IMG/VR virus record: IMGVR_UViG_3300046096_000464
Location: 45,316-109,315 of that record
DNA from: a virus
Length of the DNA stretch: 64,000 bases
Strand: one strand, 5' to 3'
The position numbers and the translations under genes are program-made. Shown here one piece after another: positions 30,263 to 60,452 of this stretch (the first letter of the stretch is position 1; each line of letters opens with the position of its first letter). The notes beneath the pieces are model-generated. The model ran no database searches and was not told where the DNA came from. It saw only the letters and a program-made list of their open reading frames with translations.

Positions 30263-30684
30263 CTATATGGAGTTGAAATATTCTGCAATAGTTATAATTT
30301 TTACTTCATCGGTAATTCGGTTTTTGATGGTGATTGCGGTGTCACCTGTAACACATTTCCCGCTTTGACGAGGTTGTCCCCAATATTAGCTAACCAGTTT
30401 ATTGATTATGCGGCAATCGGGGACAAAAAAGGATACTTAACGACAACGAAGCGGTTGCGGTCAAACGTCTTCAGCAATTTTTCCTGATATTTATAAAGTT
30501 TTATATTTGTCAACCCTTTATCCAATGTAACGATTTTGATGTAATTATTTGCAAAATAATTTATATCTTTTTTGCACTTCATAAATTCGTTTACATTATC
30601 CTCATCAAATTCTATGTCTACACCAATTCTTTTTAGGAGCGGATTCGATTGAAAAGAGTTTTCCAGTTCTTTTTTTCTTGCCAT
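30263..30684 (-). CDS. Large terminase fragment TerL-N with short N-intein; frame needs a 59-nt bypass
   Basis: The first 85 codons (MARKKELENSFQS to NRFVVVKYP) match the T4 gp17 N terminus: INYFANNYIKIVTLDKGL corresponds to the YAKNYVKLVNLDKGL region and NRFVVVKYP to NRFSICNLS. In the direct frame translation would end eight residues later (FLSPIAA, stop 30406-30408). After a 59-nt gap (30371-30429) the other frame continues RQSGK, completing Walker A, then a 30-residue N-intein beginning CVTGDTAITIKNR and ending AEYFNSI. The stop is 30263-30265. The extein is meant to be ligated to Ser-123 of TerL-M (STTMICYALW). A TATAAATA box lies at 30720-30727 and gp13 is upstream. Confidence 0.85.
30266..30355 (-). 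other. Short split N-intein (30 residues) of TerL site 1
   Basis: The codons give CVTGDTAITIKNR...IITIAEYFNSI. Cys1, the GDT block A motif and the following IKNR..D / ITIAEY pattern are typical of intein N termini. It splits after only 30 residues, much earlier than classical split inteins, as in the AceL-TerL type. It directly follows GGG AAA of Walker A. Confidence 0.85.
30371..30432 (-). other. Candidate ribosomal-bypass element with hairpin
   Basis: Read on the - strand, CCU (30430-30432, take-off) is followed by 56 bases and a second CCU (30371-30373, landing). The 56 bases contain TTGTCCCC (30419-30426) and GGGGACAA (30374-30381), a perfect 8-bp stem with a 37-base loop. Resuming after the landing CCU gives CGT CAA AGC GGG AAA, the exact expected Walker A end. 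The zero-frame stop (30406-30408) and a stop in the landing frame (30386-30388) exclude a single frameshift. Confidence 0.7.
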
Positions 30685-30719
30685 TTTTATTTTTGCTTGG
30701 ATAAGTGTTTGAGTAATAA

Positions 30720-30727
30720 TATTTATA
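30720..30727 (-). promoter_or_regulatory. T4-type late promoter box TATAAATA upstream of TerL-N
   Basis: GCGTATAAATATTATTACTC on the - strand lies 36 bases before the TerL-N ATG, so this fragment probably has its own late transcription besides read-through from gp13. Confidence 0.65.
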
Positions 30728-30768
30728 CGCAATATAAATAAAAATAAAATATGGCAACATATAAAAAT

Positions 30769-31566
30769 TTAGCCTATCATGAATATAGGATATTCCTCCC
30801 ATTCTGATGACATTTTCGCCAAAAATGCTTCTTTTTCTCGAACACCGTCGTTGTATAGTGAGTCAGCGTTAAACATCACCCCACTAGGAAGTTGTATATT
30901 AGAAAATTTTCTTAGATTTTGCCCAAATTGTATTTTGACAAGTATTGCGAAATATTCTTTGACGAATCTATCATTATATATCTTCGCAAATTGAACAGGA
31001 TCGAGTGCGCGTTGACACTGAATAATTATAAAACGATCTAACATTGATTCAATATCAAAATCTAGATATAATCTACCATTATTTCTATTAAATTTAATAG
31101 CAGTTTCCGCATTCAATATATTTATAATGTTTTCAATGCTTTGACGTAGTAGATAAATATCAGTCAGATCTAACATCTGACCACCATAAAAGTTAAACTG
31201 TTCCATTATGAAGAATTCGGGGGATCGACCGAACATGTCATGTAGGTAATTATTATTTGTTCTGGCAACACTAGTAATGCCAATTATATAGTCAGGAACT
31301 ATTAAAAAGTTTTGATTGTCAAAGAATGACAATCCACCAGGATTCAATATTTGTGTGTGTGTCTTTTTGTTATCAATATCTTGCTGTGTAATTTTATATT
31401 TAAGATACACCTCTTCTGTGCCGTCATACACACGATCCTGGTATAGTTGGAGTACGTCATCAAGAAGTTGTTCTAACTGGGAATTCTCTACATTTATTTC
31501 TATTAGTGGCGCACCTAATTTCTTTTTTGCGTAATCAAACAATGCTGTGCGAGAATTTATTGACAT
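30769..31566 (-). CDS. 13: T4 gp13-like neck protein
   Basis: The 265-residue protein matches the gp13 neck/head-completion family in its opening RTALFDYAKKKLGAPLIEIN and VENSQLEQLLDDVLQLYQDR, followed by DGTEEVYLKYKITQQDID. The later parts PDYIIGITSVARTNN and LDPVQFAKIYNDRFVKEYFA also fit. gp13 with gp14 forms the connector between the packaged head and the tail. The next gene downstream is TerL-N, 85 bases away, which recalls the T4 order 13-14-15-16-17. The iterated palindrome lies just before the start (about 31567). Confidence 0.8.
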   Translation of the reverse strand: MSINSRTALFDYAKKKLGAPLIEINVENSQLEQLLDDVLQLYQDRVYDGTEEVYLKYKITQQDIDNKKTHTQILNPGGLSFFDNQNFLIVPDYIIGITSVARTNNNYLHDMFGRSPEFFIMEQFNFYGGQMLDLTDIYLLRQSIENIINILNAETAIKFNRNNGRLYLDFDIESMLDRFIIIQCQRALDPVQFAKIYNDRFVKEYFAILVKIQFGQNLRKFSNIQLPSGVMFNADSLYNDGVREKEAFLAKMSSEWEEYPIFMIG

Positions 31567-31594
31567 TTTATTAAATTTAATAATTTTGTGTTAG

Positions 31595-32002
31595 TTAGGG
31601 AAAATTTCCCCCGTCTATAAAATAGTCATTATCACCATCATTAGTTGGTGGTATAGCTGTATTTAATATGTCAGTCACCCCTTGAGTCACGGTTATTGTG
31701 CCAGAATATAATCTGTATACTGTGTTTGTATCTACTAATGTCGATATATCATATACATATTGCCCAGTCGCCATACTAGAGGTAGTAAGATTAGTCAACT
31801 CTATAGTAAATTCTCCTAATAATGGATTAGTTTTATTACATAATATATATATAGTTTCTGAAGAATTGTACACTCCTTGTATTGCTCCAGAAATTGCCCA
31901 ACTGGTAATGTCTTTTGGTGAGCGATTATCATTCAATATCTTGATTGTTTCTAGAAACGTTGAAAACTGTTTAACTTCATAATTCTTTATAATGGTTTTC
32001 AT
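31595..32002 (-). CDS. Virion-associated beta-rich protein, 135 aa
   Basis: I do not recognise a precise family. The layout (WAISGAIQGVYNSSETIYIL, then GEFTIELTNLTTSSMATGQY, VYDI and YRLYSGTITVTQGVT) resembles the BppU-type N-terminal domains of phage tail and baseplate proteins, where a beta-sandwich ends in a strand before G.I.V..GVT. It overlaps the upstream gene by ATGA (31999-32002) and precedes gp13. A structural role is likely; the details are inferred. Confidence 0.55.
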   Translation of the reverse strand: MKTIIKNYEVKQFSTFLETIKILNDNRSPKDITSWAISGAIQGVYNSSETIYILCNKTNPLLGEFTIELTNLTTSSMATGQYVYDISTLVDTNTVYRLYSGTITVTQGVTDILNTAIPPTNDGDNDYFIDGGNFP

Positions 32003-32214
32003 TTTTGTAGTAATTGTTTTAATAGTGTTGTTATTTCTAATAAACTTTCTGACAACTCTATTACAGAAATTTCTAAATTAACTAATCTGAGATTATTGTT
32101 TTGAATATTAGCAAGATTATCTATATATTGTTTATACATATCACTATCTTGTAATAGTATAGCACCAGTAATAGGGTCTTTACATAATGATGGTTCAGAG
32201 ATTATCTTGTACAT
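31999..32214 (-). CDS. Small coiled-coil protein, 71 aa
   Basis: I do not recognise it. The first 25 residues (MYKIISEPSLCKDPITGAIL) look like a short beta segment. The rest forms a leucine-rich helix (LVNLEISVIELSESLLEITTLLKQLL) suited to oligomerisation. Its ATGA overlap with the next gene implies coupled expression. CATAAATATATAATAAAT lies upstream and may be a weak late box. Confidence 0.6.
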   Translation of the reverse strand: MYKIISEPSLCKDPITGAILLQDSDMYKQYIDNLANIQNNNLRLVNLEISVIELSESLLEITTLLKQLLQK

Positions 32215-32304
32215 AGTTATAATGCTGTATTTATTATATATTTATGTTATAATGATTATATCGTTTATTATTAGTATGGCAAAACTTCGATAAATATAAC
32301 ATAT

Positions 32305-32583
32305 GCCAATGGCAGTAGCTATAAAACACAAGTTATTATGCCAAGAGTAAATGGTAAGCAAATAAATTTTACTTCTAAAGATCTTAATTCCCTCCAGAAT
32401 ATTCATTTTCAGTTTGGTACAGAATCAGGATTAGTGTCTCCAGAACGATACCTCAAAGAAACTCCTAACTGGTTGCCCGATTCTACTATCCAATTCTCAC
32501 TAGAACAGCAGAATAAACTAGACCAATTAATTGAAGCACATTTAGAAAATCAGGCATCTTGGGATAAGCCTATTAGATTCTAA
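32305..32583 (+). pseudogene. 3' remnant of an HNH family gene
   Basis: From 32305 the frame encodes ANGSSYKTQVIMPRVNGKQI, then LQNIHFQFGTESGLVSPERY and a normal end LIEAHLENQASWDKPIRF. This equals the C-terminal 40 percent of the HNH family; the HNH core is missing. Upstream, ATGTTATAATGATTATAT matches the promoter-like element in front of intact copies, so an internal deletion removed the middle. It is the only copy on the + strand. A direct iterated element follows its stop. Confidence 0.85.
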
Positions 32584-32650
32584 GAGGGGTCTGGAATGCC
32601 CCACAATGCACGATAACTATAAATACGAGTGCTAGTGTCATAATCATAAA

Positions 32651-32690
32651 AATATGACCTTCTAAAAATCAATTAGAAGGTCATATTTTT
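32651..32690. terminator. Intrinsic terminator, GACCTTCTAA stem
   Basis: AATATGACCTTCTAA and TTAGAAGGTCATATT form a stem that works in both directions, between the HNH remnant and the 3' end of the 2011-aa gene. Confidence 0.85.
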
Positions 32691-32695
32691 GTATA

Positions 32696-35600
32696 TTAAG
32701 AAGCAGTACTGATAATTCTAAGATTTTTTATGGTTGGGTACGATGCTTGATTGTCAGATTTACAAACAATCTTGATTTGAAATTTTTTGTATTGTGGTAT
32801 GTTTCGTAATTCAAATCTAAACTCTTTAAAATCACTATTGGCTGGGTATACAATAGATGGAACCAATACAAAGTTATTATTATCAAAATTAGGAGAATTG
32901 TCTTCTCTGGATAACTTTAGATATACTTCAATACTCTCACTGGCGTTTCTAGTTGCATCCAATATGATAGTAATTGCTTGCGACGGAAGAATTAATGATA
33001 TAGGTTTAGTGATGTATACGAATGATGACATAATATAATTAGGTAACAACTCATTCCCAGCAACATTATTAATTATATTGGTGGTAGCTACTACAGAACA
33101 TTTATCATAGTCAATAATTGGTGAGATATTTTCGTTACTGGTGGACATATCTATATTTAATTTCATAGATTTGGTGCCCAATATCGCTTCATTATCGGTA
33201 GATGCCACCAATAATGGTTTGTTGAAATTAGTAGTTTTATCTATAGACAGATCAGAAGTAAATGGAATATATGATGGTTGGATTAGATTAGTACTAGAAA
33301 TACTAGTTCCAGTAGTGGCGATTAATGATAAATTAACATTAGTTTCTGGGAAATATTTATAAGATATGTTTGGTGTGACTGATTCATATTGGTGATTGAC
33401 AGAAACACTAATATTATCCCCACCACAAACATTCGTATAATTGGCACTAGAAATAGCGTATACCCCAAAATTATCTAAATCAATTGGTACAATCGAAGTA
33501 AAGGTTTTATTTAATTCTACTAGTGGAATACCATTTATAGAATAAATCTCTACTACACTATTTGTTAAATGCTGAATGATTGAAGTGTTATTCTTACCTC
33601 TACCACCAGCAGGGATAGTGATTAATTTTGTGCCATTATTCACATTAATATATGATAGGATCTCATCATCTATTTTGATATAACCTGGATTGGTGATAGA
33701 TATTGGTAGATTATTTATAAATTGAGGTACCAATTCAGGAGTTTCTACTGGTATCGTTGTAGCCACTGTATACTGAGTGTCAGAAATAATATCAGTCAAT
33801 ATAGTTGGAATATAATTAGACACTATATTCTTTATAGTCACACTGTTATTAGTGGTGTGCATCCCATGATTTTTGGAATATACACTAACTAAGTTGCTAT
33901 TTTTTGTTGTGGTTATATAATTTCCAATAATTTCTGGGAGATTGTCTTCATTATTAAAATTAATATTTCCAGTCAAACTAAATTTTGCTTTATTCAACTT
34001 GAATTTTATCGATTTCTTATTGTCTGCGATCCAATTTTTATAGTTTTGTGGGACGTATAGATTGGAAATATTAGGATTTTTGATTGAAACTATATCAGTT
34101 GTATTTTTTACTTCAAAGTCATTACTGAATATTTCATAATTATTTGAGTTAGATAGTACACAAATACAATATTGAGTATTGTCCTTTAAGTATACCATAT
34201 TATTAAATTTAATAATAGTAGGCGTATTTCCATCACTACTGGTAACTATATCTTTTGTATTTACGCTTATTTCTGAGTATGGTAGAATAGTTTCAGTAGG
34301 ATAGTTATTTTCAACAGTTCTCAACTGAACTATTAAAGGGATGAAATTATCTTTTTTGTTGAAGAATAGTTCTAATGAGGTGATAAAGCAGCCACCAACA
34401 ATATTGTTATTAAATGATTGAGTTATTGGACTATTCCAACCATTATTGTTGATGATATTACCATTGATCTGATTTTGAATTATGTTAGTGTCATTATTTT
34501 CAGGAATGCTTAGTGAGATGATGTCTTTAGTTTCGATGTTAGAATTGCCACCACACTGAAATATGGTTTTAGCAAATGTAGTATTACCAATTGCGGATAA
34601 CACTAGTGTTCCTACTGAAAATTTGTAATCGCTTTTAGTTGGGTTGGGAATAAATACATTTCCTGCAAAATTACCATTGTCATCACTAATGATATCAGTG
34701 TTTGTCAAAATTGCAATTGCCCCCGAAGTTTGTCCAATGATGTATGTGCCGACTCCAATATCCTCCACATTAAACTGATACCCGTCATTCCAATTTATTT
34801 TTATGGTGTTAGTGGTGCCAGTGTACACTCCACTAGATAAACTATCTACTTTGGCGGATATATAATTTGATAGTACTGTTGGCTGATATCTTGAACCTGT
34901 TAATACTCTAGTATTGACATTTCTCCACAACAATTTTTCACCAACTACAAATGATATAGTATTAGTGCCATTAGTACCATCCTTTTTAATTACACAAGTA
35001 GAGGGTACTACTAGATCTGTAATATTTTTTGAATTTATATATACATCCAGTTTAGTGTTTGGTTTTAGTGCATCTATATTTATTTTTATAGTTTGTTGTT
35101 TTAAGTAATTGTTGGTGTTAGTATTTTTCTTAGTAGATTTGTTGCTGGTGATAGGCAACCAATTTTCTTTGTCAGAGTAATCTCCATAAAACCAATTGTC
35201 AGAACTAGGATGAGTGTTTATAACACCTTCCCAATTATTCAACGCATATGGATTGACCTTCAATACATAATTTTTGTTATTTTGTTCGATAAATGTTGCC
35301 TCAGTATATGGTAGACTGATTAAATTATTGCTTATTTTGTAACTACCATTATTAATTTTCAATTTTATATTTTTACTTGCAGTCTTTGGTACTAAAGTTT
35401 GATCATCGGGATTTATGCTGCTTTTATATGCTAAATTACTTATGTCGGATAATTGGTAATTTAAAAATTCATCTACCACAAATCCAGTCTTTAGTCGAAC
35501 TATTCCAGTATTGTCTAGTAATACTGTATTATTGGCAGTAGATTCTAATTTGTTTAATGCTATTTCATTTTCTGTATTTTTTATTCTTTTTTCTAAATTT

Positions 35601-38600
35601 CCAATATCTTCCATAGTGTATCTCTTGTTTGGATACACCACAGTTTTAATGTCACTAATAGCTTTAACTACTGGTGGGATTTGTAATGTTGCTATCGCCA
35701 AACAATCTTGTGGCAGATCGGGATTATTTGGATTGTTTGCCGAAATACCACTAATTATTCTACATTTACCAGTAGTATCTATTATTAGTAAATCTGTTCT
35801 AGGAGTGTAATAATTATAATCACCTTTTAGTATGGTGCTTGGTGCAGGAAATGATCTTAGTTTTAATAGTCTGGTGCTGGGGTTTAGACCACTATACAAC
35901 AAACTATATGGGGATAGGAGATTGCCTAGTCCAACAATTGTTGGAGATTTAGCATAGTATCTCAAATCGATTATATTAGTCTCTATATCATCAGTTGGGT
36001 TGATGTAAGAATCAATACTCGTTATATCTCCTATACTAGTGTTAAAATAATCAAACACCACTACTAAATGATTGGTGGGTATGTTACTATTATTGATTAT
36101 GGTCAATTTGTCGATGTCATGAATGTTATTATTACTATTTTTTATTAATTTGTAATTGCCAGTTACATCAATATAATTTCCTCTATATACATTTGTCACT
36201 GTACTAGTAGTTGCAGTATTCCAATTGAACGCTGTATCAGCAATATTAAAATGATTGCTACTGTAATATATTAAATTTAATATATTACCAGTTATGCCTA
36301 TTATTTTGGCTTTTATATTCTTGTTATAAACAATATCACCTACATTAAATAATGAATTGTTGGATATAGTGATATTGTCGAAACATTCATTAGTGTAGTT
36401 GTTATTGGTATTGTCATTGTTAGAATATCTGACTGCCAATACATTACTCACATTACTATATCCTAAAGATAGTTCAGGATCATCATAACGAATACCATAG
36501 TCAGAAGGAACTACATCAGTTTTTGACTTAATGTACTTTATTACTTTATTTTGTATTAAAGTATTAGTAGTAATGGTTGGGGTGAGTAATTCTACGGTAT
36601 AAGAAACTAACCCATTCCCAGTAAAGGGCACTCCTAGATTTACTAAAGTTATTGTGTTAATCCCTGTAAATGTACCAACAAAACTTCCTACACTGGTCTG
36701 CACTAGCGTATCTCCACTATAAATTTCATTAATATTTTGATTTGGCAGTACGCCCACATTATTTGTGAACGATATTGAACTGTTTCTTATAATAGAAATA
36801 GTTTTGTTGGTGGTGTCTTTGATATTCTTATCTGTTAATGGCACATATAAGTTTTTGTTATTACTTTTTAGTATAGTAACAGATTTGTAGATGGTATCAA
36901 TATTTTGAGAAGTAAAGCTATTGGATAAAGAAAGAGTAGTATTATTTAAAATGCCATCAACTGTGGTAATAACCCCAGCCAAATTTATATTACTTCCAAC
37001 ATGTAATTCTGATATAAATTTAGAATTAATACCCGTTAAGGTTGTGCCATTGACATTGAAGTTGCTACCAGTCAAAACAAATTCTGTTTTTAATGTTGAT
37101 GCCGCAAATCCGACTCTACCAATACTTCTAATATCATCAATCAAGTAATCTCTTATTTCCAATATATTGTTGATGATATTGTTTTTTGAGTTAATAATTG
37201 GTTCGTTCAAAATAAATGTACCTGTATTGTTCTCCAACGTAATCATATCACCAACTACTGAATATACATATCCAGAAGAACCAGAAATTGTTCCAGTCAC
37301 ATGATCGCCATAGACGATATTAGTTAATGCCCCACTTACTCTTAAATCGGTGTGAGTGGATAAATCTATCACATACAGTCTCACCGAATTTTGAAGATAA
37401 TTAATCGATACGGCTTTGGCTACCCCAATAATCTTCGATGGGGTAGCTACAGTGCTAGTACTATATAAATTTATATTTTGTGGTGATGATGATACATCTA
37501 ACATACCGCCTATGCCACTAATTTCAAGATAAGACCCACAATCTATGAATGATTGGTGATTTATTCTTCGGTTTGTTTTGGTGGGTAGGTCTACGGTTAT
37601 TAATTGTTTATCTGGAAACTTGTAATTGTACCCCTTTACTACAGCATCGCCAGCAGACAATTCCACAGAAAAGTAATCATTTCCATTGATCTTATTTGGT
37701 TCACTCACCAATGGATCTACATTGATTACTGTTCTATTTTGATCGTCTACCTCATTTACTTTATATACACCATTATTAAATAAATTATCTAGTGTTGGGT
37801 ATACATTAATGTCAAAATCCTTGAGTACATAATTGCCAGCTTGTTTGTAAGTCTGAACCGCAATTGCATCAATAATTTGAGTATTTACACTTACATCGAT
37901 TTTGTAATTGATATTTCCATTCAATATTTGTACTAACTCTGTGTAATTAGTAGGAATGGCGGAACCATAAGTAAGTTTTACTACATTTGCTAATATTTGT
38001 AATCTGTCTGCTCCAACAGCAGCACAATTATTGAATCCATTCGCATTATCTGTTAAAGTTGCGTCATCTACAGCAGTGACAAATTTAGGAGTAAATTGTA
38101 TCCCAATACTATAATTACCTGTGTTGGTGTATTGATCTAATACCACACTAGTATTGTTCAGGTTGGTATAGTACCCGTCCCAATAAAATGTGCCCTGATT
38201 TACGTGTACTATACTTGAATTATATAGTGTACTATTCGTGCTAATAGTTGTGGCAAATTTAATATTATTGAATGACAATATTTCATTATCTGCAAATTTG
38301 TTATATTGTACTCCCATCAATACAGTACCACCACTAACATATTTTACATATAATGATGGTTTGGATATAGTACTATTCTTTTTGCTTACATATGCAACTA
38401 CTATGGCTTGTACGTTTGTAGTATTACCTTTAATAGTTTTGCCAATTAGTTTATTTATTTCTACATCGGGTGTATTGCCATTAAATAGATCATTTAATAA
38501 TACTACATCTACCTCTTTGTCATGAGTAATCTCACCACCAGAAATCAAATCTCCATTTTGGTATTGTACATCAGATAAAGATTTTATTTGATTCTGAGCA

Positions 38601-38731: not shown

Positions 38732-38769
38732 ACTAGAAATTTTTGTATTCTTTTTAATATTTAGTTTAA

Positions 38770-38789
38770 TATAAATATCTGTATAAATA
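38770..38789 (+). promoter_or_regulatory. Two T4-type late promoter boxes upstream of gp8
   Basis: TATAAATA occurs at 38770-38777 and again at 38782-38789, 14 to 34 bases before the gp8 ATG. A palindrome copy follows directly and reaches the start codon. Confidence 0.65.
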
Positions 38790-38803
38790 TTAAATTTAAT
38801 AAA

Positions 38804-42667: not shown

Positions 42668-43396
42668 CTATGCGGTGTAGGGCATTCTAGACCCCTCTGG
42701 GAGCATAATAGGTTGTTCCCAAGATGCTTGATTTTCTAAATGTGCTTCAATTAATTGGTCTAGTTTTATCTGATGTTTTGGTGAGAATTGGATAGTATGA
42801 TCTGGCAACCAATTAGGAGTTTCTTTGAGGTATCGTTCTGGCAATACTAAACCTGATTTGATGCCGAACTGATAGTGAATATTTTGAAGGTAATTTATTG
42901 ATTGTGAACCAAAACTTATTCTCTCACCATTTACTCTTGGCATACGAATTTGTGTTTTATAGCTACTACTACCACCATTAGCACATTTTATACCAATAGG
43001 GAGTCCAGATGACTTCTTCATTAATGCTATATTAAACCATTGAGTGACTACTTCTAAATTAGATAATTTGTTATTACTAGGATCTCCGTCGATATGATTG
43101 ATCACCCAATTATTATTAGTCTTCAATCCAACTATTAATTCATGAATTTTTACAGTTTGTCCATTTTTATATGTTAGAAATCTACCTGTATTATTAGGAT
43201 TAAAATTATATAGTTTTAATAGATCTACTTTATCAAGATCTATAGAATTAGTATATAATATACCAGTATTAGTATTGAGTACATACAGTTGGTCATAAGT
43301 AAAGAATTGATTATATATTAAATTGTAACCATTGTCTACATTATGATGAGGTTGATTGAACTGCCATAAATCCAGCGTTGTGTCGTAGTAAATCAT
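42668..43396 (-). CDS. HNH homing endonuclease with AP2-like domain, family copy 3
   Basis: This intact copy starts at MIYYDTTLDLWQFNQPHHNV (ATG 43396, matching other copies). It has the HNH core NWVINHIDGDPSNNKLSNLE and the AP2-like SYKTQIRMPRVNGERISFGS, and ends LIEAHLENQASWEQPIMLPE plus GSRMPYTA. The last ten residues are translated from the iterated element itself (CTCCCAGAGGGGTCTAGAATGCCC), so the gene runs into the late-promoter module of gp25. GTGTTATGATGATTATATAC lies upstream. It sits between gp6 and gp25, a typical place for a homing gene between essential virion genes. Confidence 0.87.
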   Translation of the reverse strand: MIYYDTTLDLWQFNQPHHNVDNGYNLIYNQFFTYDQLYVLNTNTGILYTNSIDLDKVDLLKLYNFNPNNTGRFLTYKNGQTVKIHELIVGLKTNNNWVINHIDGDPSNNKLSNLEVVTQWFNIALMKKSSGLPIGIKCANGGSSSYKTQIRMPRVNGERISFGSQSINYLQNIHYQFGIKSGLVLPERYLKETPNWLPDHTIQFSPKHQIKLDQLIEAHLENQASWEQPIMLPEGSRMPYTA

Positions 43397-43484
43397 TTTA
43401 ATATAATAAAGTATATAATCATCATAACACAGATATTGATGTATCGCAATCATAAATATCTATAGAATTATTAAATTTAATAGA

Positions 43485-50470: not shown

Positions 50471-50620
50471 TTAATAATTATATTCTTCCAAAGTTTGTCT
50501 AGCTGCATCTTCTGCGGTTAACCCATTATTAATTAAATACCTGCGGCGCGATACTAGTTTACAAATCATTTGCTTATCGTTTTTTATACTAAAAATCAGT
50601 GTTTTTAATTTGGTGTCCAT
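50471..50620 (-). CDS. Very small basic protein, 49 aa
   Basis: The frame reads MDTKLKTLIFSIKNDKQMIC, KLVSRRRYLINNG, then LTAEDAARQTLEEYNY. Its ATG overlaps the stop of the preceding gene (TAATG at 50618-50622), and a terminator follows, so it is well supported as a gene. It has a basic SRRRY patch and an acidic helical end. It is not recognised. The stop codon lies in the palindrome copy. Confidence 0.6.
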   Translation of the reverse strand: MDTKLKTLIFSIKNDKQMICKLVSRRRYLINNGLTAEDAARQTLEEYNY

Positions 50621-51012
50621 TATAGTTTATGTAGTGATGTGAACATAGTTTCTCCAGCAATTGATAACTCTAATAAAAATTCGGAAACAGTTGGCAATTT
50701 TGATAAATTATTAAGGTAGTATTCAACTTTGTTGAATATAAAATCAAAATCTGCATCGTCTGATATTAATACAGTTTCTGCTGACCAATCACCATCATCA
50801 ATGTTATTAATAGTCACATTAACTGCCGCACCATTTTGTTTAATATTTTTTACATATTTTATAGACTGACGTAATTTGATCGATAGTAATCCACTATCAT
50901 AATCAAACATTGGAAAATCACCAGTGGGTATATAACGAATGAGGTTATATTTAGACATTTCTCGAAATTTAAAATATTCTCGATAGACTGCGGACAAACT
51001 TTTATAGTTCAT
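50620..51012 (-). CDS. Hypothetical protein, 130 aa
   Basis: I do not recognise this protein. It begins MNYKSLSAVYREYFKFREMS, has TGDFPMFDYDSGLLSIKLRQ and VNVTINNIDDGDWSAETVLI in the middle, and ends in helices (NLSKLPTVSEFLLELSIAGE). It is coupled by a 1-base stop/start overlap to the 49-aa gene. It precedes gp14 in the same direction, so it may be a virion-assembly protein, by context only. Confidence 0.65.
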   Translation of the reverse strand: MNYKSLSAVYREYFKFREMSKYNLIRYIPTGDFPMFDYDSGLLSIKLRQSIKYVKNIKQNGAAVNVTINNIDDGDWSAETVLISDDADFDFIFNKVEYYLNNLSKLPTVSEFLLELSIAGETMFTSLHKL

Positions 51013-51189
51013 TGTTATTAATATTTGAATGACCCGTACTTACTAATAAAGTTACAAGTTCCTTAGACCAACATATCCAAGATGTCCTATTTAATAGAAT
51101 CTAAACAATTAGATTTATAGAGGTACAGCCTAGGAAAATATCTGAACGTATGTGCCAGGATATGTATTGTAGATGTGGTCAGACCACAA

Positions 51190-51262
51190 ATGATCTAGAC
51201 AAGACTTGAGTTAGATATATTGTTATACCCAAGCCACGGGGTTAACCCCGTGGTTCTTGACA
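51190..51262. mobile_element. Possible IS200/IS605-type end remnant
   Basis: The stretch ending TATACCCAAGCCACGGGGTT then AACCCCGTGGTTCTTGACAA contains the perfect palindrome CCACGGGGTTAACCCCGTGG. Subterminal hairpins of this kind are typical of IS605-group ends in cyanobacteria. No transposase gene remains nearby. The rest of the 51013-51189 interval shows no feature I can name. Confidence 0.4.
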
Positions 51263-51308
51263 ATTAATCTTTCGCTACTTATATATTATGACACCATCTC
51301 CATAAAAT

Positions 51309-51336
51309 GGTTATCCGCCATTTGGCGGATAACCAA
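51309..51336 (-). terminator. Strong hairpin after the DNA polymerase gene
   Basis: GGTTATCCGCC and GGCGGATAACC pair around ATTT. On the - strand the stem begins 5 bases after the polymerase stop and is followed by ATTTTATGG, a plausible terminator. Confidence 0.7.
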
Positions 51337-51340
51337 TACA

Positions 51341-53827: not shown

Positions 53828-53877
53828 GTTTCAATTTCCTTATTTTAATACTATCGTATCACTAAAATTAATTATTG

Positions 53878-54078
53878 TCAATCATCGATTTCTATATATC
53901 CTTCACCTACTAATGAAAAGTGATCGTAACCTAATGGCAATTGCATCCTCAATCGATTCCTTAATTGTATAGTGGCTGTCTGTAATATGGTTTCATATGG
54001 TTGTTTATAAACAATCACTACACCAGATAATAAGGGTAGCTGATATTGAAAACAATAATATTTTAGTTTAGTATTCAT
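53878..54078 (-). CDS. Hypothetical protein, 66 aa
   Basis: I do not recognise it. I start at ATG 54078 (MNTKLKYYCFQYQLPLLSGV), whose ATGA overlaps the stop of the gene upstream; a longer frame from 54099 is less likely. It is a small beta-rich protein ending GYDHFSLVGEGYIEIDD. It lies between a helix-turn-helix gene and the polymerase, and its role is unknown. Confidence 0.55.
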   Translation of the reverse strand: MNTKLKYYCFQYQLPLLSGVVIVYKQPYETILQTATIQLRNRLRMQLPLGYDHFSLVGEGYIEIDD

Positions 54079-54452
54079 AGCTTCACATATCCCACACAAG
54101 TTTGATATAATGCAGTAAATTCCGCACCATTCGCAGTAACCATAATGTCTTCATATATTTTTTGAGACAATTCTTCTAATTTACCTTCTGGTAAGTCTTT
54201 CCAGACTTCATCTGGTTTTGTATTAACTACCAGATCTACTTTTTTAATTTGTGAATAATTATTAGCAGGATCGACTCCTCTCAACTCACGAACTTTATGG
54301 TTCGGCATATAATGAAGTTGTTTGTTTAGTATCCCATATTCTTTAATCAAATCACAAATTTCTGGTACTGTAATACCTAACTGCATAGCCATATCTGTAC
54401 GACTACAACTTGTTTTTGCTAATAAAATTATTTCTTCTTTTGTTGGTTTCAT
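54075..54452 (-). CDS. Protein with homing-endonuclease-like HTH, 125 aa
   Basis: The N-terminal 35 residues (KPTKEEIILLAKTSCSRTDM, AMQLGITVPEICDLIKEYGI) are similar to the first HTH of the HNH protein encoded just upstream (LTKKELLDIAKTVHSGSDIA, KQLGYSVTGIHLHIKRLGI). The remaining 90 residues (SQIKKVDLVVNTKPDEVWKD to FTALYQTCVGYVKL) are not recognised and have no nuclease motif. It may be a fusion of a copied HTH onto a resident gene. I use ATG 54452, 6 bases after the upstream stop. Confidence 0.55.
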   Translation of the reverse strand: MKPTKEEIILLAKTSCSRTDMAMQLGITVPEICDLIKEYGILNKQLHYMPNHKVRELRGVDPANNYSQIKKVDLVVNTKPDEVWKDLPEGKLEELSQKIYEDIMVTANGAEFTALYQTCVGYVKL

Positions 54453-54460
54453 GTTCTTAA

Positions 54461-55501
54461 TTAAATATGTTTCCAAGTACGTCTTTCTACCATATCCGAA
54501 ACAGTTTTTCTATCCAAACTATAACGTCTAGATAATTCTCCTTTACTTACTCCTTCACTCCATAATCTTCTTATTTCTAATACTTGTTCGTCAGATACTT
54601 TACTATTCTTGTGCGAACTTCCAACCATTGTACGAGATTTGATGACAACACCTGGGAATATTTTACGCTCCACATGTTTAAAGCATTCTCGTCTCAATAT
54701 TCTCCCTACTTGTACTTGACTGATTTGGAATTTCTCACCAATTTCTTTTTGTGTCCATTTATGTATATCATACAATTCTACAATATGGAGAATATCTTCT
54801 TCACTTAAATCAGAATTAGTTCGGAATTTCTCGGCTTTATCATTATTATTGTCTATTCTGGAACCTTCAAATAAATTATCTGGGTGAACATTTAATTTAT
54901 TATCATCTTTATGACATAAACATATATCTGAAGTTAATACTACCTTTGTTAGTTGATATATGATTCTATGTATTTTATGAGATGATGGTTTTCCATTTTT
55001 ACATAAAGTGATTTTAGGATAGCCATTAGTGGTACTATACTTACACAACCAAGTATTTTCATCTATTACATCTATCTTACCTTCCAATTTTTCGATCATA
55101 TCTTGCAAATATATATCACTCAATCCTAATTTATTTACAATTGGCACACCAAAAATATTAAAATTAATATCTAATTCAATATATGCACGAACTACTCGCA
55201 CAATATTATATTTATCAATTAATCGATTTATTGTAGATGGCGAACTATTAAGTAATTTAGCTGCTTCTGATTGATGCCAATTACATTCTTCCAATGCTTC
55301 CATCAACTGTTCTCGACTAATGCTGCTGAATTTAGGTTTTTGTAGAAATATTAGTTCCTTTTTATTAATCCCCAATCGTTTAATGTGAAGATGAATACCA
55401 GTTACACTGTATCCTAATTGTTTAGCTATATCAGAACCACTATGTACAGTTTTAGCAATATCAAGCAATTCTTTTTTCGTTAAAGTTATTTTATTAGCCA
55501 T
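54461..55501 (-). CDS. HNH homing endonuclease with multiple HTH domains, 346 aa
   Basis: This is a different HNH type from the seven-copy family. The N terminus holds two HTH units (GSDIAKQLGYSVTGIHLHIK; HQSEAAKLLNSSPSTINRLI). The HNH core follows (SHKIHRIIYQLTK; DICLCHKDDNKLNVHPDNLF; EGSRIDNNNDKAEK). Two more HTH units end the protein (WTQKEIGEKFQISQVQVGRI and VSKGELSRRYSLDRKTVSDM, then VERRTWKHI). It is complete. It sits immediately downstream of TerL-M, in keeping with homing enzymes that lie beside fractured intein genes. GTTATGATTAATTTATTGAA upstream resembles the promoter of other homing genes. Confidence 0.87.
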   Translation of the reverse strand: MANKITLTKKELLDIAKTVHSGSDIAKQLGYSVTGIHLHIKRLGINKKELIFLQKPKFSSISREQLMEALEECNWHQSEAAKLLNSSPSTINRLIDKYNIVRVVRAYIELDINFNIFGVPIVNKLGLSDIYLQDMIEKLEGKIDVIDENTWLCKYSTTNGYPKITLCKNGKPSSHKIHRIIYQLTKVVLTSDICLCHKDDNKLNVHPDNLFEGSRIDNNNDKAEKFRTNSDLSEEDILHIVELYDIHKWTQKEIGEKFQISQVQVGRILRRECFKHVERKIFPGVVIKSRTMVGSSHKNSKVSDEQVLEIRRLWSEGVSKGELSRRYSLDRKTVSDMVERRTWKHI

Positions 55502-55541
55502 CTATACATCTTAATTCAATAAATTAATCATAACATCCACA

Positions 55542-57953
55542 TCATTCTTTGTCAAGTACTATTTCTGAATCAATATCTATGCACTCTTGCTTCTGCTCTA
55601 ATATGTTCTGTTCTTTTAATAAATTGTATAATTCTCCTAATTGTATGTCTCTCTCAACCCCCTCTAGATCGATGATACGAACAATACTACAAGATGAAAG
55701 CGACTCAAACTCCTGCTCGAATTGTTTAGCACTCGTATTCGCGATGGTCATTCGTTTAAATTCCGCATCTCTTCCTGGAATCATATCCCATGTAATCTCT
55801 ACTGGCACATACTCATTCTTACCATTCTTTGCATCAACAAAAATACGATAAAATAAGTTTAGCCCACGGGGGGTTTGTTCACCAACAAATCCATTATAGA
55901 TAACGGAATGACACCAAGGATCGTTAGGAACATTATCTAGAGAAAAATCATATAACTGTTCGATGTGGTCGTCATTAATCCGACGAATTTTAGTCCACAA
56001 CAAATCCGGTCTAACATTCAATTCAACAAATTCGCTAACACTACTATTAATTACAGATTGAATGATTGGTAATTTTTTAAGAGCATTTTGTCGATTCATG
56101 TGTACATATTTGTGTTGTCCCTCCCCATTAAAAGCAAAATATTGTTTAATATATTTCTTTTGTGTTTCTAATGGGAGATGTTGTTTAATGAATGGAATAA
56201 AAAATGGAATAGAATCACTCTGTTTACGAAATTTTCTGATATTAGTCTGATAGCAATTCCATTGTTGTTTGTGAGGATGTTTAAAATTAATTATTTCAAA
56301 AAATTCTGGGGTGTAGCAATTTGGTATCTTCAGCAAAGTGCGACGAGAGTATCTCATTTTTCTTCTCATATGCCAATAATATCTTCGTTGTTCATATAAC
56401 CCCTTTTTGATAGAATTAACCACACCAATATTCAATAATAATAGGTGTATTTGTTCCAATAGGTCTTCATTAGTATTAGTGATGTATATATCACCATAAT
56501 TGTTATTTTTTTTACGATGATTCACTAGTGCCATACTATCGAAGCATCCTTGGAGAAAGGTAACAGTATTAATTTTAGACCACCGAAGGGGAATATCAGT
56601 TAGACCATTTCCAAAAGTAGTATACTTATCAGGAGAAGTGTACTTCAATTTTTTTAATACACTGGCTAGTTCAATTGAATCTATAATGTAATTAACCCCA
56701 TCAAACTCATAATCCAGTCCAATATTTTTTATGGCATCATCATAACAATCCTCATCCAAATATCCACTATCCGTAATACGAAGAGTCAGAGTAATAAATC
56801 TGCCATCAGTTATATAACCACTACCAGCATATATACCAAAAAAATAAGCAAATTCTGGAGTAACTATTGGGAATTTTTCAGAATCTAATGTATCCAAATT
56901 ACCAAATATTTGAGTATTATATCTGACTGCAATAAAATCATTAGGTTCCAACTCAGATGCCCTAAACCAACCATATTTGCCTTGCTTACAGGCATAAAGT
57001 TTATGAGTAGTCGAACACTCCAATTCAGTAAAATTAGTATATATTTTTCTAACGTTTGATTTACCGTTATTACACATAACAGTACCTTTATTATTTCCCT
57101 TCATACCCACTAATTCATATGGTGGGATATGATATGATTTTTTCTCTAATTGATCTTTAATAAAAGTTTCGATGCGAGTATAACCTTTAGTGGTGAGAAT
57201 ATATGTATTTTTCACTACACAAGAAGTGATAATTAATTTAGATTCTTTAGATGACGAAATAGTAGGATATACCGAGGTCATAAACTCTTCTTGGATACCA
57301 TTAGGGACGAATGCGAATTCGTCGCAAAATACGATATTGAAGGTAGACCCGCGAACAGAGGTGGCACTGGTGGATGAGGCTAATATTTGAGAACCATTTT
57401 CAAGTTCGATATGTGTTTTATTCCATTGTATTACTCCTTGTTGTAACCACATTGGCAAATTTTCATATGCCATTTGTAGTCTACCTAATAGTTCCATAGA
57501 TAGATCTCTTTTGTTTGCTAATATTGCAATATTTTGATGAGGTTTAAATAGTGCGACCCAGAGGGCATAGCAAATCATCGTAGTCGAGTTATGTGAAACT
57601 ATATTATTGGTGATGTAGAGGTCATCTTCTACATTCAATAAATCATACATATTTTCAATATTATCTGATTCATTAATAGCAAGAATTATATCAGGATACA
57701 AATATCCACCATCATCCATTACCAATATCTCGTCCCCAACTATTAAATCTACTAGTTTAGTTTCTTCATACTCATCTTTATCATTCAATCTAATTAGAAT
57801 ATGATCGTCAGCACAAGATAGATGATATTGGGTGGTGTATACGTTCCAAACATTATATTTAATAGTTTGCCCTACTCCAGCAAAATCTTTATATCCAGTA
57901 GGCGTTAGTACTTGCCAATCATTAGTATATTTTTCTTGTACAAACTCAGCCAT
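55542..57953 (-). CDS. Large terminase middle fragment TerL-M with C-intein, internal intein and N-intein
   Basis: The 803 residues have five parts. 1-122: C-intein of site 1 (QVLTPTGYKDFAGVG..., block G ITNNIVSHN). 123-244: TerL ATPase continuing from Walker A (STTMICYALWVALFKPHQNI) with Walker B IVFCDEFAF (Asp211, Glu212) up to SKLIITS. 245-693: contiguous intein. 694-750: TerL continues TPRGLNLFYRIFVDAKNG to KQFEQEFE. 751-803: N-intein of site 2 beginning SLSSCSIVRIIDLEG. Joined exteins read KLIITSTPRGLNLFY, as in T4 gp17 IIITTTPNGLNHFY. The translated gene alone cannot be a working motor: it lacks Walker A's GK and the nuclease. AATAAATATCAG lies upstream as a late-type box. Confidence 0.9.
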   Translation of the reverse strand: MAEFVQEKYTNDWQVLTPTGYKDFAGVGQTIKYNVWNVYTTQYHLSCADDHILIRLNDKDEYEETKLVDLIVGDEILVMDDGGYLYPDIILAINESDNIENMYDLLNVEDDLYITNNIVSHNSTTMICYALWVALFKPHQNIAILANKRDLSMELLGRLQMAYENLPMWLQQGVIQWNKTHIELENGSQILASSTSATSVRGSTFNIVFCDEFAFVPNGIQEEFMTSVYPTISSSKESKLIITSCVVKNTYILTTKGYTRIETFIKDQLEKKSYHIPPYELVGMKGNNKGTVMCNNGKSNVRKIYTNFTELECSTTHKLYACKQGKYGWFRASELEPNDFIAVRYNTQIFGNLDTLDSEKFPIVTPEFAYFFGIYAGSGYITDGRFITLTLRITDSGYLDEDCYDDAIKNIGLDYEFDGVNYIIDSIELASVLKKLKYTSPDKYTTFGNGLTDIPLRWSKINTVTFLQGCFDSMALVNHRKKNNNYGDIYITNTNEDLLEQIHLLLLNIGVVNSIKKGLYEQRRYYWHMRRKMRYSRRTLLKIPNCYTPEFFEIINFKHPHKQQWNCYQTNIRKFRKQSDSIPFFIPFIKQHLPLETQKKYIKQYFAFNGEGQHKYVHMNRQNALKKLPIIQSVINSSVSEFVELNVRPDLLWTKIRRINDDHIEQLYDFSLDNVPNDPWCHSVIYNGFVGEQTPRGLNLFYRIFVDAKNGKNEYVPVEITWDMIPGRDAEFKRMTIANTSAKQFEQEFESLSSCSIVRIIDLEGVERDIQLGELYNLLKEQNILEQKQECIDIDSEIVLDKE
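55545..55703 (-). other. Split N-intein (53 residues) of TerL site 2, with Ser at position 1
   Basis: It reads SLSSCSIVRIIDLEG, then VERDIQLGELYNLLKEQN and a tail to the stop. Aligning the flanking exteins with T4 gp17 (QFRQEHTAAFEGTSGTLI against QFEQEFE+CSFIGSSLTLL) puts the junction after QEFE. Position 1 is therefore Ser and the Cys lies at position 5, where other inteins have the Asp of block A. The E-x-x-D-I..GELY pattern is typical. Confidence 0.7.
55875..57221 (-). other. Contiguous intein in TerL-M with degenerate LAGLIDADG region
   Basis: The 449 residues run from CVVKNTYILTTKGYTRIETF to HSVIYNGFVGEQ. Block A (Cys1), block B (FTELECSTTHKLYACKQ), and blocks F/G (LYDFSLDN...CHSVIYNG) are present. 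The endonuclease region has FFGIYAGSGYI and FLQGCFDSMAL, where the catalytic Asp of LAGLIDADG motifs is Ser and Met, so DNA cutting is probably lost while splicing parts look intact. The last residue is Gln and +1 is Thr, both rarer but known alternatives. Confidence 0.85.
57588..57953 (-). other. Split C-intein (122 residues) of TerL site 1
   Basis: It begins MAEFVQEKYTNDWQVLTPTG, has block B-like residues YHLSCADDHILIRLND and ends YITNNIVSHN with +1 Ser. The layout (a short N-intein elsewhere, a C-intein of about 120 residues starting with K/Q-x-LTPTG) matches the AceL-TerL kind of atypical split intein. It pairs with the N-intein at 30266-30355, 27 kb away. Confidence 0.85.
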
Positions 57954-58016
57954 TTTATTAAATTTAATAATTCTATACTGATATTTATTGGTGTGTTTTT
58001 AATTATTAAATTTAAT

Positions 58017-58055
58017 AATGACCTCCTAAAATCAATTAGGAGGTCATTATTTTAT
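58017..58055. terminator. Intrinsic terminator, GACCTCCTAA stem
   Basis: AATGACCTCCTAA pairs with TTAGGAGGTCATT and is followed by T's. Both arms changed relative to 16633 (TTC/GAA to TCC/GGA), keeping the pairing. Palindrome copies lie at 57956 and 58002. Confidence 0.88.
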
Positions 58056-58118
58056 GATTTGATACTAGTAGTCATATTTGTGATTTTTATGCTCTGAGAG
58101 GGGCATCCTAGACCCCTC

Positions 58119-58817
58119 TCAGAGCATAATAGGTTTATCCCAAGTAGCTTGATTTTCTAGATGCGTTTCAATAAGTTGTTCTAGTTTTGATTGATGTTCT
58201 GCTGTGAATACAATATTAGGATCTGGCAACCAATTAGGTACTTCTTGTAAGTATCTTTCGGGAGTGACTAATCCAGATTTTACTCCAAACTGATAATGCA
58301 AGTTTTGTAAGTAATTGAGATCTTTATAACAAAAATTTATATGTTTACCATTTACTCTTGGCATAGCAATTTGTGTTATATAGCTACCATTATTATATGT
58401 TGCACCAATAGGGAGTCCAGATGACTTCTTTTGTATTAATATGTTAAACCATTGAGTAACTACTTCTAAATTAGAACGTTTATTATTACTAGGATCGCCA
58501 TCTATATGATTAATTACCCAATTAGCATTAGTTTTATATCCATATACTAACTCATGAATTCTTACAGTTTGTCCATCTTTTTTTGTACTAAATCTACCTC
58601 CACTATTATGATACCAATTATATAGTTTTAACAATTCTACTTTATCAAGATCTATTGTGTTAGTATATATTTTACCAGATTTAGTATTCAGTACATGTAA
58701 CGTTTCATCTACAAATAGTTGATTGTAAGTAAGTTTACCTGCATATAGTTTATTGAGATTATGGTGAGGTTGATCGAATTGATAGAAATTGAGTATTTTG
58801 TCGCAGAAATGTATCAT
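58119..58817 (-). CDS. HNH homing endonuclease with AP2-like domain, family copy 4
   Basis: This intact 232-residue copy starts MIHFCDKILNFYQFDQPHHN, has the core NWVINHIDGDPSNNKRSNLE and the AP2-like part SYITQIAMPRVNGKHINFCY, and ends LIETHLENQATWDKPIML. The stop lies in the iterated element (CATAATAGG / AGAGCATAATAG). It lies between TerL-M and the divergent TerL-C, so it may have taken part in the break of terL. The 123-aa gene upstream ends 2 bases before its start. Confidence 0.87.
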   Translation of the reverse strand: MIHFCDKILNFYQFDQPHHNLNKLYAGKLTYNQLFVDETLHVLNTKSGKIYTNTIDLDKVELLKLYNWYHNSGGRFSTKKDGQTVRIHELVYGYKTNANWVINHIDGDPSNNKRSNLEVVTQWFNILIQKKSSGLPIGATYNNGSYITQIAMPRVNGKHINFCYKDLNYLQNLHYQFGVKSGLVTPERYLQEVPNWLPDPNIVFTAEHQSKLEQLIETHLENQATWDKPIML

Positions 58818-58819
58818 TT

Positions 58820-59191
58820 TTAATAATAATATATAGAATATATCTCAATCTGACGCATCCGATTTAGAAAATAGGTTTTTTCATTTTCAGTTTCAACTAT
58901 CGCAACCGACGCATAAAATTCAACACAATTCCCTAAGTCAATTCTTTCAACTTCTATATATTCTTTTAGTCCCGAACCAATTTTAAATATTTGATCTTTT
59001 AATATTATACCAGATTCACCATTAACACTGATATTAATAATTTTGATATATTTTTCGTTTAAATCTTCAACAATTCCAGAGTATCTTTGAGATCTATTTT
59101 TGTACTTAACTAAGTTGCCATTAATAATGTTCAATATATTTTTTCTCGATGTGTATTCTAATAATATAACATTATTGGTGAGATATGTCAA
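58820..59191 (-). CDS. Hypothetical protein, 123 aa
   Basis: I do not recognise this protein. It looks like a small beta-barrel: MTYLTNNVILLEYTSRKNIL, NLVKYKNRSQRYSGIVEDLN, EKYIKIINISVNGESGIILK, then VEFYASVAIVETENEKTYFL. It is divergent from TerL-C, with 37 bases between the two starts, and is followed at 2 bases by the HNH copy. It could be a resident gene captured between the terminase fragments. Confidence 0.62.
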   Translation of the reverse strand: MTYLTNNVILLEYTSRKNILNIINGNLVKYKNRSQRYSGIVEDLNEKYIKIINISVNGESGIILKDQIFKIGSGLKEYIEVERIDLGNCVEFYASVAIVETENEKTYFLNRMRQIEIYSIYYY

Positions 59192-59228
59192 GTATATCTA
59201 AATATCAATATAAAAATTCAGTTTTTAC

Positions 59229-59573
59229 ATGTTAAAATTACTTCCGTCATTACAGCAAAATATAGGAAATTTGGTAGAAACACCAGATGGTTTCGAGAAA
59301 TTTATGGGAGTGCAGAAAATTTATAGAAATAAATATATAGAATTAGAATTCTTAGACGACAATAAATTAGTTTGCTCACTTAATCATCCGATAAACACCA
59401 CAGAAGGTATAATATTAGCTAAAGATCTCACTAAAACTATAGAAATAATTGGAAAAGTAAATAATACTTTTCTTAAAACAAAAAAAACTATAAGAAAAAA
59501 AATAGAATTATATGATATTGTTAATTCTGGCAAGAATCATTGGTATTATGCGAACGATATATTAAATAAAAAC
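59229..59573 (+). other. Split C-intein (115 residues) of TerL site 2
   Basis: It runs MLKLLPSLQQNIGNLVETPD to YYANDILNKN, with +1 Cys at 59574-59576. Compared with the site 1 C-intein it keeps TP.G...F.GV/Q and the block B-like NHP, but the penultimate residue is Lys in place of His. The partner N-intein is at 55545-55703 on the other strand. Confidence 0.82.
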
Positions 59574-60452
59574 TGTAGCTTCATAGGTTCATCGCTCACC
59601 CTTCTTAATGCCAATAAATTAGCAGCATTAACCCATAAAGAACCAATAGAAAGAAATGACAATATAGTTGTCTACGCAAAACCAAATCCTACGCATAGAT
59701 ATATGATTTGTGCAGACACCGCAGAAGGTGTTGAAAAGGATTATTCAGTAGCAATGGTGTTTGACATCACTACTGTACCATACACCATAACAGCTATTTA
59801 TAAAAACAATAATATTGCACCAATAGTATTCCCCAACATAATATTGAAATTGGCGAATGAATATAATAAAGCTTACGTTCTTGTAGAGTTAAACAGCATT
59901 GGATCACAAGTAGGAGATATTCTACATTACGATCTAGAATATAGCAACCTACTTATGACAGCCACCGTGGGACGAAACGGGTTAATTCTAGGTCAAGGAT
60001 TCGGTAATAAGTGCAAATTTGGATTACAAATTACTAAAACTACAAAACGACTAGGTTATAGTAACATGAAATCTTTGATTGAAGATGATAAATTACTAAT
60101 AGAAGATTTTGGTATTATTAGTGAATTATCAACATATGTAGAAAAAGGGGATTCTTATGCAGCAGATGATGGTAGTAATGATGATCTAGTAGCTTGTATC
60201 GTATTATTTTCTTGGTGTGTTACCCAGCCGTATTTCAAAGAACTTACAGATTTAGACGTAGCAAAAGATATTCGGGAATTACACAGACAAGAAATAGAAG
60301 ACGACATGGCGGTATTAGGTGCTTTATTGATAAATGGAGAAGAATTAGAAGATGGTATTGTGGAAGAAGGTGGAGATCTGTGGTGGAATGCTAAGTTAAC
60401 TGACAGTTATTATGAGTACGGGTACGAGGTGCCAGTTATTTATTACTTTTAA
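59229..60452 (+). CDS. Large terminase fragment TerL-C (nuclease domain) with N-terminal C-intein
   Basis: Residues 1-115 form a C-intein (GNLVETPDGFEKFMGVQKIY, SLNHPINTTEGIILAKDL, end YYANDILNKN). The extein starts at Cys116: CSFIGSSLTLLNANKLAALT, matching T4 gp17 AFEGTSGTLISGMKLA. It is the complete RNase H-fold nuclease: ICADTAEGVEKDY (Asp163), VLVELNSIGSQVGDILHYDL (Glu220) and GSNDDLVACIVLFSWCVTQP (Asp318/319). After trans-splicing to TerL-M it gives the C-terminal half of the packaging motor that cuts concatemers into headful lengths. It lies on the + strand upstream of gp18, as gp17 precedes gp18 in T4, whereas N and M lie on the - strand. CTAAATATCA upstream may be the late box. Confidence 0.9.
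   Translation: MLKLLPSLQQNIGNLVETPDGFEKFMGVQKIYRNKYIELEFLDDNKLVCSLNHPINTTEGIILAKDLTKTIEIIGKVNNTFLKTKKTIRKKIELYDIVNSGKNHWYYANDILNKNCSFIGSSLTLLNANKLAALTHKEPIERNDNIVVYAKPNPTHRYMICADTAEGVEKDYSVAMVFDITTVPYTITAIYKNNNIAPIVFPNIILKLANEYNKAYVLVELNSIGSQVGDILHYDLEYSNLLMTATVGRNGLILGQGFGNKCKFGLQITKTTKRLGYSNMKSLIEDDKLLIEDFGIISELSTYVEKGDSYAADDGSNDDLVACIVLFSWCVTQPYFKELTDLDVAKDIRELHRQEIEDDMAVLGALLINGEELEDGIVEEGGDLWWNAKLTDSYYEYGYEVPVIYYF

What the first reader, a model, noticed from the sequence alone, without database searches (positions are those of the whole stretch)
30263..60452. Large terminase fractured into three genes on both strands over 30 kb
Seen: TerL-N (30263-30684, -), TerL-M (55542-57953, -) and TerL-C (59229-60452, +) each hold a different part of T4 gp17. 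The N part ends in Walker A RQSGK, the M part has Walker B CDEFAF, the C part has the nuclease Asp/Glu/Asp. Each junction carries the two halves of a split intein, and M has an additional whole intein. Known: split-intein fractured genes exist in phage metagenomes, including TerL in the AceL case. Inferred: the working motor is assembled from three polypeptides by two trans-splicing and one cis-splicing reactions. Three introns-worth of inteins plus two fractures in one gene, with one fragment inverted, would be an extreme case.
Basis: partly seen in the sequence, partly recalled or inferred. Interest (0 to 1): 0.95.

Follow-up and report, generated by a model that had tools for sequence, protein, structure and literature searches.

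The report
Three-piece split-intein phage packaging motor
A T4-like phage encodes its DNA-packaging motor protein as three separate gene fragments, one of them inverted, that must be stitched together by self-splicing protein elements, and the first fragment is also broken by a 59-base hairpin that ribosomes may have to jump over.

Summary
TerL of this T4-like phage lies in three genes: N (30263-30684, -), M (55542-57953, -) and C (59229-60452, +). The joined exteins give 561 aa and match T4 gp17 in one stretch (305 bits). Both junctions carry atypical split inteins, and M also holds a whole LAGLIDADG intein. Two other assemblies carry 100% identical DNA.

Correction: TerL-N is not an open frame. 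A 59-nt hairpin insert lies between KYP and RQSGK, changes the frame, and has stops in all three frames. Matched CCT codons flank it, as in T4 gene 60, so ribosomal bypassing is a candidate, unproven.

Multi-piece TerL is recurrent. Marine contigs L113/L114 have three collinear TerL genes; their near-identical relative L112 has two and lacks a cassette inserted exactly between the EFE and C codons. A 381-kb phage has four TerL genes spread over about 290 kb. Two-piece TerL occurs in isolates (Campylobacter phage CPX, Vibrio phage vB_VmeM-32).

Verdict: a new variant of a known kind (genes fractured by split inteins). The record is a 109-kb fragment, so an intact terL elsewhere is not excluded, and no splicing was observed.

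The parts
30430..30684 (-). TerL-N, first reading frame: extein residues 1-85 (MARKKEL...VVVKYP); the last codon CCT (30432-30430) is the candidate take-off codon
   Evidence: matches T4 gp17 and S-CAM8 TerL 7-81
30371..30429 (-). 59-nt frame-breaking hairpin insert, ending in a second CCT (30373-30371, candidate landing codon)
   Evidence: MFE -23.1 kcal/mol, z -4.8; stops in all three frames; no counterpart in relatives
30356..30370 (-). RQSGK, first part of the Walker A P-loop, in the second frame
30263..30355 (-). N half (30 aa, Cys1, CVTGDT...) of the Walker A split intein, with stop
57588..57953 (-). C half (122 aa, ends SHN) of the Walker A split intein, start of TerL-M
   Evidence: homologous intein C-parts in 335 phage records
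57222..57587 (-). TerL-M extein 1 (STTMICY...LIITS), with Walker B DE at about 57323
55875..57221 (-). whole cis intein with LAGLIDADG domain (CVVKN...GEQ) at ITS|TPRG
   Evidence: Pfam Intein_splicing and LAGLIDADG_3; boundaries
55704..55874 (-). TerL-M extein 2 (TPRGLNL...EQEFE)
55542..55703 (-). N half (Ser1, SLSSCSIV..., up to 53 aa with tail) of the EFE|C split intein, with stop
   Evidence: same site as CVSGDT... in L035/L036
59229..59573 (+). C half (115 aa, ends NKN) of the EFE|C split intein, start of TerL-C
59574..60452 (+). TerL-C extein: nuclease domain (CSFIGSS...), catalytic D, E and DD
   Evidence: Pfam Terminase_6C
58119..58817 (-). HNH endonuclease gene between M and C, member of a multi-copy family
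54461..55501 (-). HNH/HTH endonuclease gene directly downstream of TerL-M

Best explanation
This T4-like phage makes its large terminase from three separately encoded polypeptides. N and M are ligated in trans at Walker A (RQSGK|STT) by an atypical split intein, M and C are ligated in trans at EFE|C by a second one, and a LAGLIDADG intein is removed in cis at ITS|TPRG. No fragment alone has a complete P-loop. The state most likely arose by successive invasion of conserved homing sites by intein plus endonuclease cassettes that were first collinear (as in the L112 to L113 step), followed by rearrangement that moved N away and inverted C. Shown at sequence level: fragments, exteins, intein halves, kept catalytic residues, recurrence, and one cassette present/absent in a near-identical pair of relatives. 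Inferred: that splicing occurs, that the products meet, and that the 59-nt insert in TerL-N is somehow overcome (ribosomal bypassing preferred).
For: Joined exteins match T4 gp17 in one stretch and S-CAM8 TerL end to end. Intein halves fit each other and the Cat split intein. Same DNA in other assemblies. Three collinear TerL genes in L113/L114 against two in L112, cassette exactly at EFE|C, mature protein identical. Four TerL genes in G001. Distant inverted two-piece TerL in isolates CPX and vB_VmeM-32.
Against: TerL-N has a frame-breaking insert and cannot be read straight through. The M-C intein has Ser1 and a KN end and the cis intein an EQ end, so their activity is uncertain. No protein data. 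The genome record is incomplete.
Confidence: 0.75

Rival explanations
1. TerL-N at 30 kb is a recently killed copy, inactivated by the 59-nt insertion, and a working terL or terL-N lies in the unassembled part of the genome or is supplied by a co-infecting phage.
For: Frame broken with stops in all three frames. The record is a 109-kb fragment lacking capsid and portal genes known from S-CAM8.
Against: The rest of TerL-N, its intein half and its stop are intact. The insert is the same in three assemblies, so it is the population consensus. No empty allele was found in viral contigs, genome contigs or the record.
Confidence: 0.2
2. The three fragments act without ligation, as a non-covalent genes-in-pieces enzyme, and the inteins are dead remnants.
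For: Non-covalent split enzymes exist in T4-like phages (NrdA of Aeh1; the paper is listed in the references of PMC3322345). Some intein end residues are non-canonical.
Against: The P-loop is cut inside GK|S, hard to use unligated. Clean intein boundaries are kept at every junction here and in relatives. L112 and L113 keep an identical joined TerL.
Confidence: 0.05
3. The arrangement is an assembly artefact (chimera or inversion).
For: Metagenome-derived record; repeats lie around M and C.
Against: Other assemblies give 100% identical DNA, and one 42.8-kb contig carries all three pieces. Independent fractured cases exist elsewhere.
Confidence: 0.03

Closest known systems
Fractured genes with split inteins and free-standing endonuclease genes in phage metagenomes (Dassa et al. 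2009, doi 10.1093/nar/gkp095; not held, content from memory)
   Same: Conserved phage enzyme broken by split inteins, endonuclease genes nearby
   Different: Described there as genes broken in two with the endonuclease between; here three pieces 30 kb apart with one inverted, plus a cis intein and a frame-breaking insert
AceL-TerL split intein / Cat consensus split intein (PDB 6dsl)
   Same: Atypical split with a short N half; C halves match 6dsl; site EFE|C in TerL as recalled for AceL
   Different: Ser1 and KN end at EFE|C; a second split intein at Walker A of the same protein
L113/L114 marine T4-like contigs, found here
   Same: TerL in three genes split at the same two sites, Walker A and EFE|C
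   Different: Collinear and adjacent with endonuclease genes between; no cis intein at ITS|TPRG; no insert in N
G001, 381-kb phage contig IMGVR_UViG_3300011242_000001, found here
   Same: TerL pieces far apart and on both strands with split inteins
   Different: Four genes; extra break before Walker B; whole mini-intein directly followed by a second N half in the N gene
Two-piece terL of isolates: Vibrio phage vB_VmeM-32, Campylobacter phage CPX
   Same: TerL pieces distant and on opposite strands
   Different: Only one trans junction
T4 gene 60 translational bypass (PMC5009743, PMC11194080)
   Same: Short non-coding insert with hairpin and matched flanking codons, frame changed across it, in a gene fragment created by endonuclease invasion
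   Different: CCT not GGA codons; 56 not 47 nt between them; no stop next to take-off; take-off codon not in the stem; upstream stem-loop not significant

Membership tests
T4-type large terminase (gp17) | ATPase and nuclease domains in one homologous protein after joining exteins | tested here: met
   305 bits to 3ezk, one stretch 9-498; Pfam Terminase_6N and Terminase_6C
T4-type large terminase (gp17) | Walker A and B and nuclease catalytic residues | tested here: met
   Walker A exists only after N-M ligation
Fractured gene with split intein | Gene broken at a point where one side ends in an intein N half and the other starts with a C half | tested here: met
   two junctions:
Fractured gene with split intein | Endonuclease gene at the fracture | tested here: met
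   HNH gene 58119-58817 between M and C and 54461-55501 beside M; beside N only a weak hint
Fractured gene with split intein | Protein trans-splicing to a ligated product | not testable with these tools
   needs expression or mass spectrometry
Class 1 intein chemistry | Cys/Ser at position 1, terminal Asn with penultimate His, Cys/Ser/Thr at +1 | tested here: inconclusive
   Walker A intein: C1, HN, S+1, met. EFE|C intein: S1, KN, C+1. Cis intein: C1, EQ, T+1
[quoted passage not shown]
   CCT 30432-30430 and CCT 30373-30371, 56 nt between; frame changes; relatives read xPRQxGK without a gap
T4 gene 60-type programmed bypass | Stop codon directly after take-off and take-off codon within a stem-loop | tested here: not met
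   next codon is TTT, first stop 8 codons after take-off; stem starts after the take-off codon
T4 gene 60-type programmed bypass | Nascent peptide signal and upstream stem-loop | tested here: inconclusive
   KLYKY 19-23 aa upstream lies in a region shared by TerL relatives; upstream stem z -0.7
T4 gene 60-type programmed bypass | Shown to be bypassed in translation | not testable with these tools
   needs a reporter or mass spectrometry

The most novel reading that the evidence does not exclude
The packaging motor of this phage needs one ribosomal bypass of a 59-nt hairpin insert, two protein trans-splicing reactions and one cis-splicing reaction before a working P-loop exists: a further phage gene-60-like bypass, again in a gene fragment made by endonuclease invasion.
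Probability: 0.4. Interest if true: 0.9.

Novelty: new variant of a known kind. Interest (0 to 1): 0.72.

Why it matters
It would show that an essential phage motor can be spread over three or four distant genes and still be rebuilt by protein splicing. The L112/L113 pair captures the step from two pieces to three at base resolution. If the insert is bypassed, it adds a rare natural case of ribosome hopping, and again in a gene broken up by mobile endonucleases. The two split-intein sites are also candidates for three-segment protein ligation.

Tried and rejected
Simple frameshifting across the insert: all three frames hit stops. Insert as a genome repeat: no other long copy in the 109-kb record, and in viral contigs only the two contigs of the same phage. 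Known RNA family at the insert: none above threshold. Other frame breaks of this type in genes shared with cyanophage S-CAM8: none seen. Retrieval of the missing genome part through a repeat fingerprint: the new contigs only matched the same 109 kb. Allele of TerL-N without the insert: not found. Relation of ORF 29821-30159 to the endonuclease between N and M in L112: only 13 of 38 residues, E 0.003 in a single comparison, kept as a hint. NCBIfam gave nothing for the split inteins themselves. Structure prediction was not run, because the joined protein is not a translation of the window and sequence evidence was enough.

Full report
Observation. N (30263-30684, -) covers T4 gp17 up to Walker A, M (55542-57953, -) the rest of the ATPase, C (59229-60452, +) the nuclease. 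Removing the predicted inteins and joining gives exactly 561 aa, which matches T4 gp17 (3ezk) with 305 bits in one stretch, 9-498. Pfam gives Terminase_6N (3.9e-10), Intein_splicing and LAGLIDADG_3 in M, and Terminase_6C (4e-9) in C. The intact TerL of cyanophage S-CAM8 aligns to the pieces end to end: 7-81, 84-208, 209-265 and 266-549. Walker B DE and the nuclease D, E and DD are kept.

Correction. TerL-N is not an open frame. The codons run to KYP (last codon CCT, 30432-30430). Then come 59 nt (30429-30371) ending in a second CCT, then CGT CAA AGC GGG AAA = RQSGK in another frame, followed by CVTGDT... and a stop at 30263. Relatives read on into RQxGK without a gap. The insert folds into a hairpin of -23.1 kcal/mol with an 11-bp outer stem, z -4.8, none of 200 shuffles as stable; about 0.25% of 59-nt windows of the genome fold as well. 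All three frames carry stops, so no single frameshift passes it. The insert is identical in contigs 3300046335_000050 and 3300046339_000011, has no other long copy in the record and none elsewhere in viral contigs. No empty allele was found.

Assembly. The window is 45316-109315 of a 109,315-base virus record. Contigs from metagenomes 3300046335 and 3300046339 are 100% identical over the regions they cover, and 3300046335_000050 holds N, M and C. Contigs from 3300046311, 3300046313 and 3300046315 match other parts of the record at 99.98% or more. These metagenome numbers are close together and may be one sampling series, so they are separate assemblies but perhaps not independent populations. 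No other terL match lies in the record. Homologues of the S-CAM8 portal, capsid and several replication genes were not seen in it, so the genome is probably incomplete.

Inteins. Walker A site: Cys1 N half of 30 aa and a C half of 122 aa ending SHN|S. EFE|C site: Ser1 N half (up to 53 aa with its tail) and a C half of 115 aa ending NKN|C. Both C halves match the Cat consensus split intein 6dsl (1.3e-7 and 4.2e-10). The cis intein at ITS|TPRG ends EQ. A KN end also occurs at the M1-M2 junction of G001. Whether these variants splice is not known.

Relatives in IMG/VR. G009 has a cis intein at Walker A. G006 has a cis intein at Walker A plus a split at EFE|C. G007/G008 have a split at EFE|C, with an HNH gene between the halves in G007. 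G003 is split at Walker A. The 381-kb contig G001 has four TerL genes: N at 328 kb (-), with a whole mini-intein directly followed by a second N half; M1 at 198 kb (+); M2 at 195 kb (+); C at 38 kb (+). A 78-kb relative, G016, keeps M1 and M2. L112 has N, a Vsr/DUF559-like endonuclease gene and M-C. L113 and L114, 99.6-99.8% identical to it on the upstream side, have N, that gene, M, another gene (GIY-YIG in L113) and C; the extra stretch of about 988 bp in L113 starts exactly between the EFE and C codons. The mature TerL of L112 and L113 is the same. In the tree, L112/L113 join the intact S-CAM8 TerL (100/99), not the window, so multiple fracture probably arose more than once.

Isolates. Vibrio phage vB_VmeM-32 has TerL-N at 80 kb (-) and the rest at about 1.5-3.2 kb (+), with a cis intein at Walker B. 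Campylobacter phage CPX is split at Walker B, with the pieces about 22 kb apart on opposite strands. PspYZU05, PSTRCR_127 and 92A1 have adjacent pieces with a further gene between, an endonuclease in the two that were checked. VP-1 has a cis intein at Walker A and a split at EFE|C. So distant and inverted two-piece TerL exists in isolates; three or four pieces go beyond it. A paper on Campylobacter phage IBB_35 already noted an intein and an endonuclease insertion in terL (PMC3322345). I found no open paper that describes a TerL in three pieces, but most subscription papers are not held.

Mechanism. Trans-splicing at both junctions and cis-splicing in M would give a normal TerL; no piece alone has the whole P-loop. 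A likely path is that two homing sites were filled one after the other by intein plus endonuclease cassettes (the L112 to L113 step), with later rearrangement. Multi-copy HNH genes and repeats lie around M and C. For the insert, T4 gene 60 is the nearest model: matched codons, a gap of similar length (47 nt there, 56 here), and a gene fragment made by endonuclease invasion (PMC5009743). In the gene 60 system sliding stays processive for gaps up to 56 nt (PMC11194080). [quoted passage not shown] The same review names a terminase of Streptomyces phage Hau3 as another likely bypass. A dead TerL-N with an intact copy elsewhere is the main rival.

Verdict. The finding is real and well supported at sequence level. 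It is an extreme but not unique form of a known kind. The frame-breaking hairpin is the least explained part and the most interesting to test.

Noticed in passing
L113:2222-3210 against L112:4980-4982: Near-identical marine T4-like contigs that differ by a split-intein plus GIY-YIG cassette inserted exactly between the EFE and C codons of terL, turning a two-gene TerL into a three-gene one; synonymous differences cluster next to the site, as after homing.
   Followed up: yes
L044, L071, L072 (G001, 381 kb): TerL in four genes; the N gene carries a whole mini-intein directly followed by a second intein N half.
   Followed up: partly
whole 109-kb record; in the window for example 57957, 58005, 63269: The palindrome ATTAAATTTAAT occurs 43 times against 0.2 expected from base-shuffled sequence; several copies, such as those at 31570, 38789 and 57957, lie close to gene starts, so it may be a promoter or operator.
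   Followed up: partly
window 17944-18693, 19128-19874, 42668-43453, 58119-58817; fragments near 32295-32653 and 60462-60945: Multi-copy HNH endonuclease gene family, 75-82% identical at DNA level, with repeats of about 110 bp beside many copies.
   Followed up: partly
L039:4681-11229: nrdA with two cis inteins and a break at about 7825-7848, where a copy of the endonuclease-flanking repeat lies; nrdB with one cis intein.
   Followed up: partly
L047:10001-10099 (302-kb phage contig): A Clp-like AAA+ protein appears cut at its Walker A (GKTGTGK) by a similar intein N half CVTGDT... ending in a stop.
   Followed up: no
L045 (G002, 239 kb): Stand-alone TerL-N with a Walker A intein N half; no M or C piece was detected in the contig.
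   Followed up: partly
window 3073-3195: 39-base tandem repeat inside ORF 2234-3463.
   Followed up: no
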